This document shows positions 2-7,148 of a stretch of DNA of 10,882 nt, one piece after another. Below the pieces are notes generated by a model. That model was not told where the DNA came from and did not search any database. It was given only the letters and a program-made list of their open reading frames with translations. Positions within the stretch are counted from its first letter, which is position 1. Each line of letters starts with the position of its first letter. The translations under genes were made by a program, and so were the position numbers. The DNA comes from DASVDK01 sp036381125 [NCBI: Thermodesulfobacteriota bacterium]. Lineage in GTDB: Bacteria; DASVDK01. The stretch covers positions 1-10,882 of the forward strand of contig DASVDK010000355.1 in the NCBI GenBank assembly GCA_036381125.1, in the 5' to 3' direction.

Positions 2-706
2 CTCGCCGGCAACGCGGGCGAGATCCTGGTCATGCTCCTCGCGGCGCTCGTCGGGTTCCCGCTCCCGCTGCTGCCGGTGCAGATCCTCTGGGTGAACCTC
101 GTGACCGACGGCCTGCCGGCGCTGGCGCTCGCCACCGAGCGGGTCGAGCCGGAGGCGCTCACCCGCCCGCCGCGCCGGCTCGACGACGGCTTCACCGACG
201 CGCGGTTCCTGCGGCGCCTCGTACTCGCCGGCGCCGCGATCGGCCTGGTGTCGCTCCTCGGCTTCTGGCTCGGCTACCGGTCCTCCGGCGACGCCGACGA
301 GGGGCGCAGCCTCGCCTTCGCCGTGCTCGTCGTGAGCCACGTGCTCTGGGCGCTCGCGGCCCGGTCGTGGACGCGGATCGCCCTCGGGCCGGCGCTCTTC
401 ACGAACGCCCGCCTGCTCGCCGTGGTCGTCGGGACGCTCGTCCTGCAGGTCCTCGTCGAGAGCGTGCCCGCCGTGGCCGCCTTCCTCGGCGTCGAGGCGC
501 TCGCCCTCGGCGACTGGCTCCTCGCCGGCGCCCTCGGCCTCGTGCCGGCCGTGGCGGTGGACCTGTCGAAGTGGATCGAGCGGCGGGCGTCGTGCCGGGG
601 GGCGCCGCGGCTCAGGAGCGGGCCGATCCGGGGCCCGGGGCCGGGAAGGCGCGCCGCAGCTCCTCCGGAAGCTGGTGGTACACGTCCTCCATCTGACCGC
701 GGCTGA
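2..706 (+). CDS. P-type cation-transporting ATPase (IIA, Ca2+/Mn2+-like), C-terminal part
   Basis: The 5' end lies outside the window; the reading frame is open from base 2 and 234 residues remain. The product would pump a divalent cation across the cytoplasmic membrane at the cost of ATP. The phosphorylation and nucleotide domains are missing here. What remains matches transmembrane helices M5 to M10 (about residues 8-28, 30-44, 71-92, 102-120, 136-155 and 166-192). The M5 signature NAGE (N4, E7) and the M6 signature WVNLVTDGLPALAL (N32, T35, D36) correspond, by alignment from memory, to SERCA ligands N768, E771, N796, T799 and D800. The M8 ligand E908 appears to be His113 here, so a one-site, SPCA/PMR1-like ion stoichiometry is more likely than a two-site SERCA type. 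The last 40 or so residues are Pro/Gly/Arg-rich, non-membrane, and overlap the convergent CBS gene by 95 bp, so the true tail may be degenerate. Family call is firm; ion specificity is inference. Confidence 0.88.
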   Translation, partial: LAGNAGEILVMLLAALVGFPLPLLPVQILWVNLVTDGLPALALATERVEPEALTRPPRRLDDGFTDARFLRRLVLAGAAIGLVSLLGFWLGYRSSGDADEGRSLAFAVLVVSHVLWALAARSWTRIALGPALFTNARLLAVVVGTLVLQVLVESVPAVAAFLGVEALALGDWLLAGALGLVPAVAVDLSKWIERRASCRGAPRLRSGPIRGPGPGRRAAAPPEAGGTRPPSDRG

Positions 707-1487
707 CGGTCTGCGAGACGACGTTCCAGACGGCGGCCATGAGCGACGCCGCACGGTCCCGGTCCACGCCGAGCTGCCGAACGAGGTCGGCCTCGATCGT
801 CTCCCGCGTGACGCCCTTGTCCGGGCCGGGCGGCAGCGCGCGCAGCCTCGGTTGGAGCAGCGAGGGGAGCTGCGCGACGAGGTCCTTCGCCTCGTCGGGG
901 GTGAGTCGCCGCACGATCGAGCCGAGGACGACCTCGAGCGCCGCCTCCGCCCGCTCCGGCGCCTCCAGGGCCGCCTCCGCCTGCAGTTGCCGGACGAGGC
1001 GGCCGAAGGTGGCCTCCGCGCGGGCGGCGCGCCGCGCCCTCGCCGGCGACCTGACCGGCCCCGCCGGCCCGCCCTCGCCGATCTGCGCCTCGACGACCGC
1101 GGCCAGGTGATCGAGCGGCGCGGCCTCGTCGAGGAGGAGGTCGTCGAGCGTGACCAACCCGACGAGGCGCCCGTCCTCGACGAGCGGGATGCGCCGGACG
1201 TTGTAGTCCTCCATCATCCGGATCGCGTCGGTCTGGTCGTCGGCCGGGGAGAGCGTCACCACGGGCGTCGTCATGACCTCGGAGAGGGGGGTCGTCCTCG
1301 GGTCGCGCGCGCGTCCGACGACGCGGACCGTAAGGTCACGGTCGGTGACGATGCCGACCACCTGCCCCTCCCGCTGCACGACCACTGCGCCGATGTTGTT
1401 GTTCTCGAGCGCCCGCGCCGCGTCGAGCACCGGGGTGTTCGGGTTGAGCACCACGAGGCGCGGCCGCACGTACAGCCTGAGCGACAT
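612..1487 (-). CDS. CBS-CBS-DUF2267 fusion protein
   Basis: A soluble 291-residue protein. Two CBS motifs lie at about residues 9-59 and 72-124; each carries the usual G-x-V-T-D/L-x-D-L ending (GIVTDRDL, GLVTLDDL). Paired CBS motifs form a Bateman module that binds adenine nucleotides such as AMP, ATP or related ligands. After an Arg/Ala-rich linker, residues about 157-283 match DUF2267: a helical stretch with RRLTPDEAKDLVAQLP, then VSRGQMEDVYHQLPEELRRAF. The function of DUF2267 is unknown; it is often found beside or fused to stress-type domains. The ATG start has AAGGAG about 7 nt upstream, directly in the 22-nt gap after the CBS-HPF gene, so the two are co-transcribed and this is the second gene. 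It overlaps the ATPase tail on the opposite strand. Domain calls are confident; the role as an energy or stress sensor is inference. Confidence 0.88.
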   Translation of the reverse strand: MSLRLYVRPRLVVLNPNTPVLDAARALENNNIGAVVVQREGQVVGIVTDRDLTVRVVGRARDPRTTPLSEVMTTPVVTLSPADDQTDAIRMMEDYNVRRIPLVEDGRLVGLVTLDDLLLDEAAPLDHLAAVVEAQIGEGGPAGPVRSPARARRAARAEATFGRLVRQLQAEAALEAPERAEAALEVVLGSIVRRLTPDEAKDLVAQLPSLLQPRLRALPPGPDKGVTRETIEADLVRQLGVDRDRAASLMAAVWNVVSQTVSRGQMEDVYHQLPEELRRAFPAPGPGSARS

Positions 1488-1509: not shown

Positions 1510-2355
1510 TCAGGCGGTCGAGACGACCGCCCCGCGGCGCCGGCCGCGCGCGCGGAGCGTCCGCCTGCGCTGGAGCGCTCGCCGAACGGCTCGCTCCACG
1601 CCGGCGAGCGCCCGGTTCACCGCGCCGCGGCGCGAGGCGTCCCGCCCCTCGACGACCACGCTCGGCAGACCGTGCAGGACCACCGCGACCCGGCAGGCCG
1701 TGTCGACGCCGCCGCGGGGGCCGTTCACGTCCCGCAGGCCGACGTTCACGCGCTCGATGGCCGGCGCGAACTTCCCGAGCCTGTCGCCGAACCGGCGCCG
1801 GATGTCGTTCCGGGTGCGGCGGTCGAGCGCGACGCCCGTCGCCCGGATGCGCACCGGCATCGGCGGCGGGGCGTCCGTGCGGCCGGACGCCCGCGTGCGG
1901 CGGCGGACGATCGGGCGCCCGCCGCGCCGCGTGGCGCTCGCCGGCGACCGCTGCGTCGGCCGCTCGGCCCGGATCGTCGGGCGGGTCGATCCGCGACCGA
2001 GCGCGTCGAGCACATCGGTGGCCGTCACGATGCCGACGAGTCGATCGCCCTCCAGCACCGGCAGCGAGCCGACCTGACGGCCTCGCATCAGGTTCGCCGC
2101 CTGCCTGAGCGTCGTGTTCGGTTGGACGGTCACCGTGCCAGGCGTCATCAGCTCCTCGACCGTGCGGCCCTTGCGAAGGACCGCTCCGTTGCGGCCGCCG
2201 AGGTCGCGCTCGGAGAGGATCCCGACCAGGTGCGAGTCGTCGGTCACCACGAGATGGCGGATGCGGCGTTGCCGCATGCGGGACCAGGCGGCGCTCGCCG
2301 GCTCGGCCGCGCCGATGGTCTCCACGGGCGTGCTCATGATCTCGTGGACCCGCAT
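1510..2355 (-). CDS. CBS-CBS-HPF/RaiA-like ribosome-associated fusion protein
   Basis: A soluble 281-residue protein, first gene of a leftward operon. Two CBS motifs (about residues 1-56 and 67-120; VGILSERDL and VGIVTATDVLDAL) form a likely nucleotide-sensing Bateman module. A basic, disordered linker (about 121-165) follows. Residues about 166-262 resemble the HPF/RaiA (sigma-54 modulation, S30AE) ribosome-associated fold: VRIRATGVALD at the start, then a helix, the strand IERVNVGLRDVNGPRGG, and CRVAVVLHGLPSVVVEG followed by a basic helix. The tail is Arg-rich, as expected for rRNA contact. HPF/RaiA proteins bind the 30S decoding region and stabilise dormant ribosomes. Fused to CBS motifs, this one may make hibernation respond directly to adenylate levels; that is inference. 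A purine-rich AAAGGCAAGG stretch precedes the ATG. CBS calls are secure; the HPF call is good but rests on remembered family patterns. Confidence 0.84.
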   Translation of the reverse strand: MRVHEIMSTPVETIGAAEPASAAWSRMRQRRIRHLVVTDDSHLVGILSERDLGGRNGAVLRKGRTVEELMTPGTVTVQPNTTLRQAANLMRGRQVGSLPVLEGDRLVGIVTATDVLDALGRGSTRPTIRAERPTQRSPASATRRGGRPIVRRRTRASGRTDAPPPMPVRIRATGVALDRRTRNDIRRRFGDRLGKFAPAIERVNVGLRDVNGPRGGVDTACRVAVVLHGLPSVVVEGRDASRRGAVNRALAGVERAVRRALQRRRTLRARGRRRGAVVSTA

Positions 2356-2439: not shown

Positions 2440-2463
2440 GCGCCTTGACCCACGTCAAGGCGC
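2440..2463. promoter_or_regulatory. Crp/Fnr-family (FNR/DNR/NnrR-type) operator palindrome
   Basis: Perfect inverted repeat with 10-bp arms (GCGCCTTGAC and GTCAAGGCGC) around a 4-bp spacer, CCAC. The core TTGAC-N4-GTCAA has the spacing and near-consensus half sites of FNR-type boxes (TTGAT-N4-ATCAA); C/G at the fifth position is common for DNR/NNR nitric-oxide regulators. It lies in the divergent region between the CBS-HPF gene and the NO-related membrane protein gene. Its centre (2451.5) is 29.5 bp from a weak -10-like CACGAT at 2481-2486, which is the class II geometry (site at about -41.5 for a start near 2493). It could also serve the leftward operon. The regulator itself is not in the window. 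Confidence 0.72.
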
Positions 2464-4140: not shown

Positions 4141-4554
4141 CTAGCGCCGTCGGGGGGGCGCTGCGACGCCGGACGCACCGCCGGTCCGGCGTCTCCCGGC
4201 AAGGCGAGCGCGCAGCAGGGCGGCAAGGACGACGGCCTGGTTGTGCTCCGGGTCGCGCGCGCCGTAGACGAGCGTGACGGGGCCGCGGCGGGCGTGCGCC
4301 GCGAGGTCGGCCAGCGCCGCCTTCGGCTCTGCCTGCGCGAGCTCGCGCCGGTAGCGACGGCGAAACTCGTCCCACCGCTCGGGGTCGTGACCGAACCAGC
4401 GGCGCAGTGCATCGCTCGGCGCGAGCACCCTGGCCCAGACGTCGATGCGCGCCGTCGCGCGCGAGACGCCGCGCGGCCAGAGGCGGTCGACGAGGACGCG
4501 GTAGCCGTCCTCCGGAGAGGCCGGCTCGTAGACACGCTTGATGCGGATCGTCAT
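4141..4554 (-). CDS. DUF488 family protein
   Basis: A soluble protein of 137 residues, typical of the short DUF488 family. Recognisable motifs are IKRVYEPASPEDGYRVLVDRLWPRG near the N-terminus, WFGHDPERWDEFRRRYRREL in the middle, and LVYGARDPEHNQAVVLAALL near residues 95-113. The biochemical function of the family is not established; its members often lie near stress and nitrogen-oxide genes. I chose the ATG at 4554, because the family begins directly at M-x-I-x-x-K-R-V-Y; the in-frame ATG at 4605 would add 17 unconserved residues. The Shine-Dalgarno sequence is weak (a run of G only). The C-terminal 20 residues are Arg/Ala/Pro-rich and beyond the usual domain. It is transcribed away from the nos cluster, so the 240-bp gap before nosC probably holds divergent promoters. 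Confidence 0.82.
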   Translation of the reverse strand: MTIRIKRVYEPASPEDGYRVLVDRLWPRGVSRATARIDVWARVLAPSDALRRWFGHDPERWDEFRRRYRRELAQAEPKAALADLAAHARRGPVTLVYGARDPEHNQAVVLAALLRARLAGRRRTGGASGVAAPPRRR

Positions 4555-4598
4555 TGCCCCCCCAGTATGACGCGCCCGGCCGGGCCTGTCGCGGACCT

Positions 4599-4634
4599 GG
4601 GGCATCGGTGTCCCCGCCGGGACGGCGATGCCCC
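4599..4634. promoter_or_regulatory. Nested hairpin in the DUF488/nosC divergent region
   Basis: Outer arms GGGGCATCG and CGATGCCCC (9 bp, perfect) enclose a 2x2 internal loop and a second perfect stem, GTCCC and GGGAC, around CGCC. The 36-nt element lies about 160 bp upstream of nosC and 45 bp upstream of the DUF488 start. No T-run follows it. It could be an operator or a folded 5' leader; its role is unknown. The rest of 4555-4794 shows no convincing promoter or FNR-type box. Confidence 0.5.
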
Positions 4635-5252: not shown

Positions 5253-7148
5253 ATGTCCACGAAACATCACACGAGGCGCGCTGCGGTGCTCGCGATCGGC
5301 GCCGCCGCGGCCCTGGTCGCGGGGGGCTGCAGCGCCGGATCGAAGCCCGCGGCCGAGAAGCCGGCCGCCACCGACGCGGCTCGCGCCGCGTACGTCGCCC
5401 CGGGCGAGCTGGACCAGTACTACCTCTTCTACTCGGGCGGACACTCGGGGCAGGTGTTCGTGGCCGGGGTACCCTCCATGCGGCACATCGCCACGATCCC
5501 CGTGTTCACGCCGTACCCCGGCACCGGCTACGGCTTCGACGACGAGTCGAAGGCGATGCTCGGGGCGTTCACCTGGGGCGACGTGCACCACCCGAACCTC
5601 TCGAAGACCGACGGCCGGTACGACGGCCGCTGGCTCTTCGTGAACGACAACGCCAACAACCGCGTGGCCCGCATCGACCTGCGGGACTTCAAGACGAAGC
5701 AGATCTTCGGCCCGATCCCGAACTCGAGCGGCAACCACGGCTCCGCATTCGTCACGCGCAACACCGAGTACCTCCTCGTCGCGAGCCGCTTCTCGGTCCC
5801 GCTGCCCAAGGGGCGCGTGGCGCCGGTCAAGGACTACGGGACCCAGTACAGGGGCTCGGTGACCGGCCTCAAGGTGGACCCGGCGTCGGGCGAGATGTCG
5901 ATGGGGTGGCAGATCGTGACGCCGCCGTTCAACTGGGACCTCGGCGCGACCGGCCGCGGCCCGAGCGACGGCTGGGCCTTCTGGTCCAGCTACAACAGCG
6001 AGCGGGCGACCGGCAAGCTCGAGGTGACCGCCTCCCAGAACGACCGTGACTACGCGGCGTTCGTCAACTGGAAGGCGGCCGAAGAGGCGATCGAGAAGAA
6101 GCAGTACACGGAGATCGGCGGCGTCAAGGTCATCGACCCCGCGAAGGCGAAGGGGGTCATGTACCTGGTGCCGCTCGGCAAGAGCCCCCACGGCATCGAC
6201 GTGACGCCGGACGGCCGGTACGTCATCGGCTCGGGCAAGCTCGCGCCGGTCGTGACCGTCTACGACTTCGAGAAGTTCAAGGAGGCGATCGCGAAGGAGG
6301 ACTTCGTCGGCGAAGAGGACGGCATCCCGGTCGTCCGCTGGGAGGCCGCGGCGATCGCCGAGGTGCCGGTGGGCCTCGGGCCGCTCCACACGCAGTTCGA
6401 CGGCAAGGGCTACGCCTACACGTCGCTCTTCGTCGAGTCGGCCGTGGCCAAGTGGAAGCTGCCGCCGTACGAGCCCGGCGCGAAGATGGAGCAGTACGTG
6501 GTCGACAAGATCCCGGTCCACTTCAACATCGGCCACCTCGTCACCTCGCACGGCGACACCGAGGAGCCCGACGGGCGGTGGCTCGTGGCGATGAACAAGC
6601 TCTCGAAGGGCCGGCACCTGAACGTGGGGCCGTCGCAGCCCGAGTCGAGCCAGCTCATCGACATCACCGGGCAGAAGATGCGGATGATCGCCGAGGCCTT
6701 CACCGAGCCGGAGCCGCACTTCGCCCAGCTCGTCCGGGCGGACGTCCTCAAGCCGATCGAGGTGTACTCGAAGGACGAGAACACGAACCCGAACGCCATC
6801 TGGTCGGCCGACGAGGCGAAGGTCGAGCGGAAGGGCAACAAGGTCACGGTGTGGCTCTACCAGGTGCGGACCTTCTTCGCGCCGGACGTGATCGAGGTGA
6901 ACCAGGGCGACGTGGTGACGGTGCACATCACCAACGCCGAGCAGACGCGCGACGAGCTGCACGGCTTCGGGATCGCCGAGTACAACGTCAACGTCGTCAA
7001 CGACCCGGGCGAGACCAAGACGGTCACGTTCGTCGCGGACAAGGCGGGGGTCTTCCCCTTCTACTGCACGAACTTCTGCTCGGCGCTCCACCAGGAGATG
7101 CAGGGCTACCTGGTGGTGAACCCGTCGAAGCGCAAGCCGAGCGCGTAG
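5253..7148 (+). CDS. nosZ: Nitrous oxide reductase, clade II (atypical) type
   Basis: A 631-residue periplasmic multicopper enzyme that reduces N2O to N2. The N-terminal seven-bladed propeller carries all seven CuZ histidines, assigned by spacing against the Pseudomonas enzyme: H112 and H113 (DVHHPN), H162 (GNHG), H313 (SPHG), H379 (GPLHTQF), H428 (IGHL) and H489 (EPHF). The C-terminal cupredoxin carries the CuA ligands H570, C605, C609, H613 and M616 (FYCTNFCSALHQEM). The residue between the cysteines that supplies a backbone ligand is Trp in clade I and Asn607 here. Gene context (nosB, nosC) places it in clade II. The start is ATG with GGGAGG about 5 nt upstream. Residues 1-26 look like a lipoprotein signal ending at C26 (LVAGGC), followed by a Lys/Ala/Pro linker like that of NosC, so NosZ may be membrane-anchored. 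A TRRA pair is present but the rest of a Tat motif is not. Confidence 0.97.
   Translation: MSTKHHTRRAAVLAIGAAAALVAGGCSAGSKPAAEKPAATDAARAAYVAPGELDQYYLFYSGGHSGQVFVAGVPSMRHIATIPVFTPYPGTGYGFDDESKAMLGAFTWGDVHHPNLSKTDGRYDGRWLFVNDNANNRVARIDLRDFKTKQIFGPIPNSSGNHGSAFVTRNTEYLLVASRFSVPLPKGRVAPVKDYGTQYRGSVTGLKVDPASGEMSMGWQIVTPPFNWDLGATGRGPSDGWAFWSSYNSERATGKLEVTASQNDRDYAAFVNWKAAEEAIEKKQYTEIGGVKVIDPAKAKGVMYLVPLGKSPHGIDVTPDGRYVIGSGKLAPVVTVYDFEKFKEAIAKEDFVGEEDGIPVVRWEAAAIAEVPVGLGPLHTQFDGKGYAYTSLFVESAVAKWKLPPYEPGAKMEQYVVDKIPVHFNIGHLVTSHGDTEEPDGRWLVAMNKLSKGRHLNVGPSQPESSQLIDITGQKMRMIAEAFTEPEPHFAQLVRADVLKPIEVYSKDENTNPNAIWSADEAKVERKGNKVTVWLYQVRTFFAPDVIEVNQGDVVTVHITNAEQTRDELHGFGIAEYNVNVVNDPGETKTVTFVADKAGVFPFYCTNFCSALHQEMQGYLVVNPSKRKPSA

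What the first reader, a model, noticed from the sequence alone, without database searches (positions are those of the whole stretch)
1510..2355. CBS-CBS-HPF/RaiA fusion: a possible nucleotide-gated ribosome hibernation factor
Two CBS motifs (about residues 1-56, 67-120) are joined by a basic linker to an HPF/RaiA-like domain (about 166-262) with an Arg-rich tail. HPF and RaiA hibernate ribosomes and CBS pairs bind adenylates; both facts are established for the families. A single chain combining them could bind or release ribosomes in answer to AMP/ATP directly, without ppGpp-driven transcription. It shares a divergent promoter region with an NO-related operon.
Basis: partly seen in the sequence, partly recalled or inferred. 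Interest (0 to 1): 0.66.

Follow-up and report, generated by a model that had tools for sequence, protein, structure and literature searches.

The report
Bacterial CBS-HPF ribosome hibernation fusion
This gene encodes a bacterial protein that joins a likely energy-nucleotide-sensing module to a domain of the kind that shuts down idle ribosomes, a combination studied so far in archaea and, as far as the sequences tell, evolved separately here.

Summary
Window 1510-2355 (-) encodes 281 residues: two CBS domains (Pfam 2e-29), a basic linker and a C-terminal HPF/RaiA domain. Pfam scores the HPF part at threshold (21.8 bits in the whole protein, 24.7 alone, cut-off 23.7), but its AlphaFold model matches HPF/RaiA-type chains in the first 33 of 50 rows (best Z 13.9). 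Colinear fusions 47-55% identical occur in eight other genomes, found around Acidobacteriota and Gemmatimonadota MAGs; one has lost CBS2. Fused HPF domains share a branch next to unfused bacterial HPFs. The adenylate-type motif is intact in both CBS domains.

The architecture has a precedent: archaeal HibA (PMC13324472), four CBS domains plus HPF/RaiA, binds 70S ribosomes. HibA binds AMP, yet AMP or ATP left its ribosome states largely unchanged, so nucleotide gating is unproven. Here there is one CBS pair, a bacterial-type HPF domain, and another S30AE protein in 8 of 8 fused genomes. I read it as a rare, probably independently evolved bacterial analogue of HibA. The NO-operon neighbourhood was not seen in other loci.

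The parts
1510..2355 (-). CBS-CBS-linker-HPF/RaiA fusion gene, 281 aa, stop codon at 1510-1512
   Evidence: ORF list; Pfam; eight fused orthologues
2188..2355 (-). CBS domain 1 (about residues 1-56)
   Evidence: Pfam reports two CBS stretches but prints only the best; limits by alignment with the CBS1 hit at residues 3-52 of L178
1999..2160 (-). CBS domain 2 (residues 66-119)
   Evidence: Pfam best stretch
2203..2223 (-). CBS1 motif G-I-L-S-E-R-D (residues 45-51), adenylate (ribose-phosphate) type
   Evidence: G, S and D identical in all 9 aligned fused proteins; meaning of the motif is recalled
2014..2034 (-). CBS2 motif G-I-V-T-A-T-D (residues 108-114)
   Evidence: G, T and D identical in the 8 of 9 aligned proteins that keep CBS2; L178 lacks it
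1861..1995 (-). basic, low-confidence linker (about residues 121-165)
   Evidence: pLDDT means 32-48 over residues 121-160; 13 K/R against 2 D/E; length varies between orthologues
1561..1854 (-). HPF/RaiA (Ribosomal_S30AE) domain, residues 168-265
   Evidence: Pfam; AlphaFold plus VIA-align
1513..1560 (-). Arg-rich C-terminal tail (about residues 266-281); no S30AE_C dimerisation domain
   Evidence: Pfam shows no PF16321; charge count
2440..2463 (.). perfect inverted repeat GCGCCTTGAC-CCAC-GTCAAGGCGC in the divergent intergenic region, holding an FNR/CRP-family-like box TTGAC-N4-GTCAA at 2445-2458 (possible regulator site, unproven; the likeness is recalled)
   Evidence: only match to TTGAYNNNNRTCAA in the window, even with 1 mismatch allowed; at that tolerance 15 of 200 shuffles have a match, mean 0.07; arms read from the sequence; no exact box in the 10 orthologue loci

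Best explanation
A bacterial ribosome hibernation factor of the HPF/RaiA family with an N-terminal, probably adenylate-binding Bateman (CBS-pair) module. [quoted passage not shown] The CBS pair, on a flexible basic linker, is a second arm. By pairing with a second chain's CBS pair, or by lying against vacant sites on the 50S subunit as HibA's does, it strengthens capping, and adenylates probably tune its stability, its partners or release. Shown here: domain make-up, predicted fold of the HPF part, conservation of the fusion, conserved nucleotide motifs, and presence of other S30AE proteins in fused genomes. Inferred: ribosome binding, nucleotide binding, dimerisation, and any effect of nucleotide on the ribosome.
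For: CBS 102.1 bits, S30AE at threshold. HPF model: rows 1-33 of 50 in the PDB second look are of HPF/RaiA/pY type (6h4n_x Z 13.9 rmsd 1.6; RaiA with Balon 8rd8_D Z 13.5; A. baumannii HPF 7m4z_v Z 13.6), first other row Z 7.4. The three-sequence HPF profile finds 7m4z_v at 4.9e-7. Eight fused orthologues 47-55% identical and colinear. In the HPF tree the 9 fused and 2 unfused close relatives form one branch (SH-aLRT 90), the fused label needing 3 changes against 8.8 in shuffles. Motifs G-x-x-S/T-x-x-D kept in both CBS domains. Precedent for CBS plus HPF on ribosomes: HibA; haloarchaeal HVO_2384 has the same two parts (passages).
Against: I found no experiment on this bacterial family in the papers listed by seven searches. 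The S30AE score of the window protein is below the cut-off as a whole protein, 3 of 8 orthologues are also below it, and a single-sequence search of solved structures gave only E 0.32. HibA shows no clear nucleotide effect on ribosome binding. One orthologue (L178) has lost CBS2 and two close relatives lack CBS altogether, so the CBS part is dispensable at least in some lineages. The CBS half was not well modelled. The HPF branch support is moderate (90) on 106 columns.
Confidence: 0.68

Rival explanations
1. Directly nucleotide-gated switch: AMP/ADP binding to the CBS pair lets the HPF domain bind, ATP releases it, so hibernation follows energy charge without new transcription.
For: Both CBS motifs intact; CBS pairs act as adenylate switches in other proteins (recalled; also stated in PMC13289028, passages); HibA-CM prefers AMP, Kd 12 uM.
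Against: HibA's conformational landscape on ribosomes was largely unchanged with 5 mM AMP or ATP. The linker here is long, variable and modelled at low confidence, a poor path for an allosteric signal.
Confidence: 0.2
2. CBS-mediated ribosome pairing: two chains dimerise through their CBS pairs (forming the four-CBS disk that HibA carries in one chain) and so bridge two 70S ribosomes, replacing the S30AE_C domain that long HPF uses for 100S formation.
For: One CBS pair per chain instead of two; no PF16321 domain; long basic linker; two Bateman modules make a disk in HibA (passage). The role of S30AE_C in 100S formation is recalled.
Against: No dimer modelled or tested. The domain order is reversed relative to long HPF. 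At least 4 of the 8 fused genomes also carry long HPF with its own S30AE_C, so pairing may be covered already.
Confidence: 0.15
3. A divergent HPF paralogue that no longer works on ribosomes: the HPF fold is reused for another RNA or protein and CBS regulates that.
For: Low identity to solved HPFs (18% to 7m4z_v), S30AE at threshold, at least one other S30AE protein in all 8 fused genomes.
Against: The nearest solved sequence is a ribosome-bound HPF and the domain stays strongly basic (24 K/R, 9 D/E).
Confidence: 0.15
4. True HibA by transfer from Archaea, with CBS domains lost.
For: Same order of domains, CBS first and HPF last.
Against: The HPF profile does not list the HibA chain 9sr9_H at E up to 10 while it finds bacterial HPFs. 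The nearest relatives in the tree are unfused bacterial HPFs. Two CBS domains, not four. HibA itself was not in my tree.
Confidence: 0.07

Closest known systems
HibA (archaeal ribosome hibernation factor; PMC13324472, Nat Commun 2026, PDB 9SRE; I take chain 9sr9_H, 392 aa, 9sre among its entries, to be HibA)
   Same: CBS module at the N-terminus, HPF/RaiA domain at the C-terminus in one chain.
   Different: HibA has four CBS domains, is archaeal and has two archaeal insertions. Here one CBS pair, bacterial-type HPF, and the HPF profile does not list 9sr9_H at E up to 10.
Short HPF / RaiA (YfiA, pY), Pfam Ribosomal_S30AE; closest solved sequence A. baumannii HPF 7m4z_v
   Same: Fold (Z 13-14 for the best rows) and, from 5 of 8 orthologues, family score.
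   Different: Carries a CBS pair and a basic linker in front; diverged (18% identity to 7m4z_v).
Long HPF (S30AE plus S30AE_C, PF16321); mycobacterial RafH is called a dual-domain HPF (abstract start in a search listing, PMC10799931)
   Same: HPF domain joined to a second domain in one chain.
   Different: The second domain is a CBS pair at the N-terminus, not S30AE_C at the C-terminus. Long HPF is present separately in at least 4 of the 8 fused genomes.
Dri (two CBS modules, archaeal) and the CBS-domain chains on M. acetivorans ribosomes (9znf, 9zng; titles)
   Same: CBS modules used on ribosomes; the 9znf and 9zng chains are among the CBS matches of the fused profile.
CBS-DUF2267 protein, next gene downstream (612-1487)
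   Same: N-terminal CBS pair.
   Different: C-terminal DUF2267, no HPF domain.

Membership tests
HPF/RaiA (Ribosomal_S30AE, PF02482) | Curated Pfam score | tested here: inconclusive
   Window protein 21.8 bits whole (below 23.7), 24.7 for the HPF part alone; fused orthologues 5 of 8 above as whole proteins, 6 of 8 in the genome search
[quoted passage not shown]
   AlphaFold strand/helix order and PDB matches
HPF/RaiA (Ribosomal_S30AE, PF02482) | Binding in the 30S mRNA/tRNA channel | not testable with these tools
   Needs co-sedimentation or cryo-EM
Long HPF | C-terminal S30AE_C dimerisation domain (PF16321) | tested here: not met
   No PF16321 hit in the window protein at E up to 1 or in the 8 fused orthologues at E up to 0.01
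HibA | HPF/RaiA domain at the C-terminus of a CBS module | tested here: met
HibA | Four tandem CBS domains | tested here: not met
   Two CBS stretches in the window protein and in 7 of 8 fused orthologues, one in L178
HibA | Descent with archaeal HibA C-terminal domains | tested here: inconclusive
   HibA chain not listed by the HPF profile at E up to 10; nearest tree neighbours are unfused bacterial HPFs, but HibA was not in the tree
HibA | Two archaeal-specific insertions in the HPF domain | tested here: inconclusive
   93 of the 95 residues of E. coli HPF (6h4n_x) align at 1.6 A, leaving little room for insertions; HibA was not superposed
CBS / Bateman module | Tandem CBS domains over the Pfam cut-off | tested here: met
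   102.1 bits in two stretches, cut-off 24
CBS / Bateman module | Adenylate-type G-x-x-S/T-x-x-D motif in each CBS | tested here: met
   Residues 45-51 and 108-114; key residues identical in 9 of 9 (CBS1) and in the 8 of 9 that keep CBS2. Motif meaning recalled
CBS / Bateman module | Nucleotide binding | not testable with these tools
   ITC needed

The most novel reading that the evidence does not exclude
Bacteria independently evolved an adenylate-sensing hibernation factor in which a CBS pair does the work of the long-HPF dimerisation domain. CBS-CBS pairing between two ribosome-bound chains would link two 70S ribosomes, or cap the 50S as a four-CBS disk, and the AMP/ATP ratio would set the strength of that pairing. 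Ribosome storage would then follow energy charge post-translationally, convergent with archaeal HibA.
Probability: 0.15. Interest if true: 0.85.

Novelty: new variant of a known kind. Interest (0 to 1): 0.55.

Why it matters
HibA showed that a CBS module can be part of a hibernation factor, but left open what the nucleotide does. A bacterial family with the same parts, probably made separately and with a single CBS pair, is a natural second experiment. If two lineages joined the same two modules, energy sensing or CBS-mediated capping is probably useful in ribosome storage and not an accident of archaeal history. The protein is 281 aa, has half the CBS domains of HibA, and can be tested on bacterial ribosomes.

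Tried and rejected
Chance or frame artefact: rejected, since the fusion is colinear in eight other genomes.

NO-operon partnership: considered and not kept. In 10 loci (7.6 to 19 kb; 8 around fused genes, 2 around unfused close relatives) I saw no operon shared with the window; clusters shared between loci were those of close relatives, plus a DUF488 gene in the window and L175. The home-made gene finder is rough: it called no gene over the fused ORF of L172. An exact FNR-like box: none in any of the 10 loci. In that call the L175 contig begins inside the gene, and for L181 I took the start of another frame, so the 300 bases upstream were not those of its HPF gene; the count for the whole locus is not affected.

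Wider distribution: HPF query in genome contigs found nothing, full protein in viral contigs nothing, HPF part in plasmids one match, an Ideonella HPF annotated without CBS (339 bases), L177 protein in plasmids nothing at E 1e-5. Phylum of G007 (Anaeromyxobacter): 74 of 155 genomes have an HPF match at E 1e-6; the 30 loci fetched show no CBS fusion, the rest were not inspected. Phylum of G014 (Candidatus Eisenbacteria MAG): 2 of 47 with a match at E 1e-15, neither fused. Phylum of G016 and of G019: 0 of 198 each at E 1e-18 (the genomes listed are the same apart from the centre, so I count them once). Phylum of G012 (Phycisphaerales MAG): 2 of 199 at E 1e-18, neither fused. Empty answers at strict E-values do not exclude divergent fusions. 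The tool names no groups; phylum names are inferred from the titles of the centre records. No search was centred on Pseudomonadota, Methylomirabilota, Bacillota or Archaea, and the source of the window is unknown.

Tree rows: of 91 loci L081-L171, four repeats were left out; with the window 88 rows, of which 85 entered the tree (three had no match or at most 30 bits).

HibA in the tree: wanted, but no archaeal genome handle was at hand. The fold libraries end on 8 April 2026; HibA did not appear in the rows shown, which proves nothing.

Literature: (all rows seen: 3, 2, 0, 9 and 4 papers) and the looser (10 of 28 and 12 of 40 rows seen) listed no report of a bacterial CBS-HPF fusion by title or abstract start. 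The HibA paper did look for domains fused to HPF in Bacteria (section 28), but the main-text sections and passages that I saw name none; its supplement was not readable here, so it may list one.

Full report
What is there. The gene at 1510-2355 on the minus strand codes for 281 residues. Pfam finds two CBS domains (102.1 bits) and a Ribosomal_S30AE domain at residues 168-265. The S30AE score is 21.8 bits in the whole protein and 24.7 for the HPF part alone, on either side of the curated 23.7, and a single-sequence search of solved structures gave only 7m4z_v at E 0.32, so the family call needs independent support. It has it. [quoted passage not shown] In the PDB second look the first 33 of 50 rows are of HPF, RaiA or protein Y type, most of them on ribosomes (a few identified by recall, their titles not naming the chain); the best is E. 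coli HPF on the 100S ribosome (Z 13.9, 1.6 A, 93 residues), and the first other row is at Z 7.4. Foldseek on the whole model ranks CBS proteins first and then the same HPF/pY families (target TM 0.57-0.82 in the five HPF/pY rows among the 50 shown). The CBS half and the linker were modelled poorly.

The fusion is a conserved protein, not an accident. A search of 20 genomes, reached through 20 of 80 NosZ-bearing loci, gave a 55% identical HPF part in G004, the Bryobacteraceae MAG of L006, inside one open frame with two CBS domains. A search of its phylum added G034, and a profile of the three HPF parts found more. In all, eight genomes carry the fusion: G004, G034, G361, G436 and G909 from searches centred on G004 and G034 (Acidobacteriota, inferred from the title of L006), and G481, G496 and G498 from a search of the phylum of G002, a Gemmatimonadales MAG. 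Identity to the window protein is 47-55%. The order CBS-CBS-basic linker-HPF is kept; the linker varies in length. G496 (L178) has lost CBS2, and the G436 copy is cut by the contig start. Two genomes, G383 and G504, have a close HPF without CBS.

The fusion is rare in these samples. In the even sample of the phylum of G004, 2 of 297 genomes have it, one of them the search centre (single-sequence query, so divergent copies could be missed); in the phylum of G002, 3 of 160. Within the class of G034 it is 3 of 193, the centre included, in the order of G004 2 of 150, the centre included, and within the class of G498 3 of 246, the same three genomes. None was seen in the phylum of G014 (2 of 47 with a match, none fused), of G012 (2 of 199, none fused), of G016/G019 (0 of 198 at E 1e-18), or in the 30 fetched loci of the 74 matching genomes (155 searched) in the phylum of G007.

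Origin. In a tree of 85 HPF domains the nine fused proteins and the two unfused close relatives form one branch (SH-aLRT 90). Next to it lie eight unfused HPFs; the 19 together have support 99. The fused label needs 3 changes, against 8.8 in shuffles, compatible with one gain and two losses. The tree has only 106 columns, many open forks, and no HibA.

Nucleotide side. The G-x-x-S/T-x-x-D motif, which I recall as the adenylate ribose-phosphate site of CBS domains, is intact in both CBS domains of the window protein. Its key residues are identical in all nine aligned proteins for CBS1 and in the eight that keep CBS2. This makes adenylate binding likely but does not show it.

Comparison with the known. 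HibA (PMC13324472; I saw the outline with abstract, sections 9, 12 and 28, and passages) is a CBS module of four CBS domains followed by an HPF/RaiA domain. It was detected in 47% of archaeal genomes and binds 70S ribosomes in three conformations. Its CBS module binds AMP (Kd 12 uM), ADP (65 uM) and ATP (113 uM), but the conformations on the ribosome were largely unchanged by AMP or ATP. A haloarchaeal protein with the same two parts, HVO_2384, co-purified with a Pat2 acetyltransferase variant (PMC12607858, passages). The window protein has the same order but one CBS pair. Its HPF profile finds bacterial HPF 7m4z_v (4.9e-7; the next HPF row is at 0.064) and does not list chain 9sr9_H at E up to 10, whereas the full-length profile lists that chain with its best stretch in the CBS part. 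I take 9sr9_H to be HibA from its length of 392 and from 9sre among its entries, the code given in the paper. I therefore take the window protein for a probably independent bacterial analogue, not a HibA. The HibA authors looked for domains fused to HPF in Bacteria; the main text that I saw names no CBS fusion there, and their supplement was not readable here.

Place in the cell. All eight fused genomes carry at least one other S30AE match. In G004, G909, G034 and G361 (and the unfused G383) one of these has the S30AE_C domain of long HPF; in the other four fused genomes the extra S30AE proteins that I scanned lack it, and one in G436 (L198) was not scanned. So the fusion looks like an added, specialised factor.

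Neighbourhood. Downstream lies a CBS-DUF2267 gene, and on the other strand the end of a cation-transporting ATPase. Upstream and divergent are a weakly NnrS-like gene, a DUF542/ScdA_N gene and, further on, the nos genes (NosZ of the Sec-dependent type 860.6 bits, NosD 396.9). The 142-base intergenic region holds TTGACCCACGTCAA inside a perfect inverted repeat with 10-base arms, the only such box in the window. No exact box occurs in the 10 orthologue loci and no operon is shared with them. The NO link is a property of this locus at most.

Mechanism and its limits. The best reading is a hibernation factor whose HPF part caps the 30S channel and whose CBS pair acts as a nucleotide-binding second arm (0.68). 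Direct gating by AMP/ATP (0.20) and CBS-mediated ribosome pairing (0.15) are sub-readings or alternatives that only bench work can separate.

Noticed in passing
window 2440-2463: Perfect inverted repeat with 10-base arms holding an FNR/CRP-family-like box TTGAC-N4-GTCAA, the only such box in the window, 34 bases before the NnrS-like start codon at 2498. A possible shared anoxia/NO regulator site for both divergent genes.
   Followed up: partly
window 612-1487 (-): A CBS pair fused to DUF2267 lies directly downstream of the CBS-HPF gene; in L174 a plain CBS-pair gene (6000-6797) lies directly upstream of the orthologue.
   Followed up: partly
L202 1096-1896 (-), genome G909: A different HPF fusion: Ribosomal_S30AE joined to a cold-shock domain (CSD, 33 bits), in a genome that also has the CBS-HPF fusion and long HPF.
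   Followed up: no
L178 9305-10045 (+), genome G496: Orthologue that has lost CBS2 although its near relative L177 (G498) keeps it; natural loss or assembly error, not resolved.
   Followed up: no
window 4141-4605 (-) and L175 2282-2689 (+): A DUF488-N3i gene lies within about 1.8 kb of the fusion gene in both the window and G436, the only gene cluster other than CBS shared between the window and an orthologue locus.
   Followed up: no
PDB 9l96_a (also 9l98, 9l9c, 9l9v): A 406-aa CBS-domain protein chain, similar in length to HibA, matched by the CBS part of the fused profile; its identity was not looked into.
   Followed up: no
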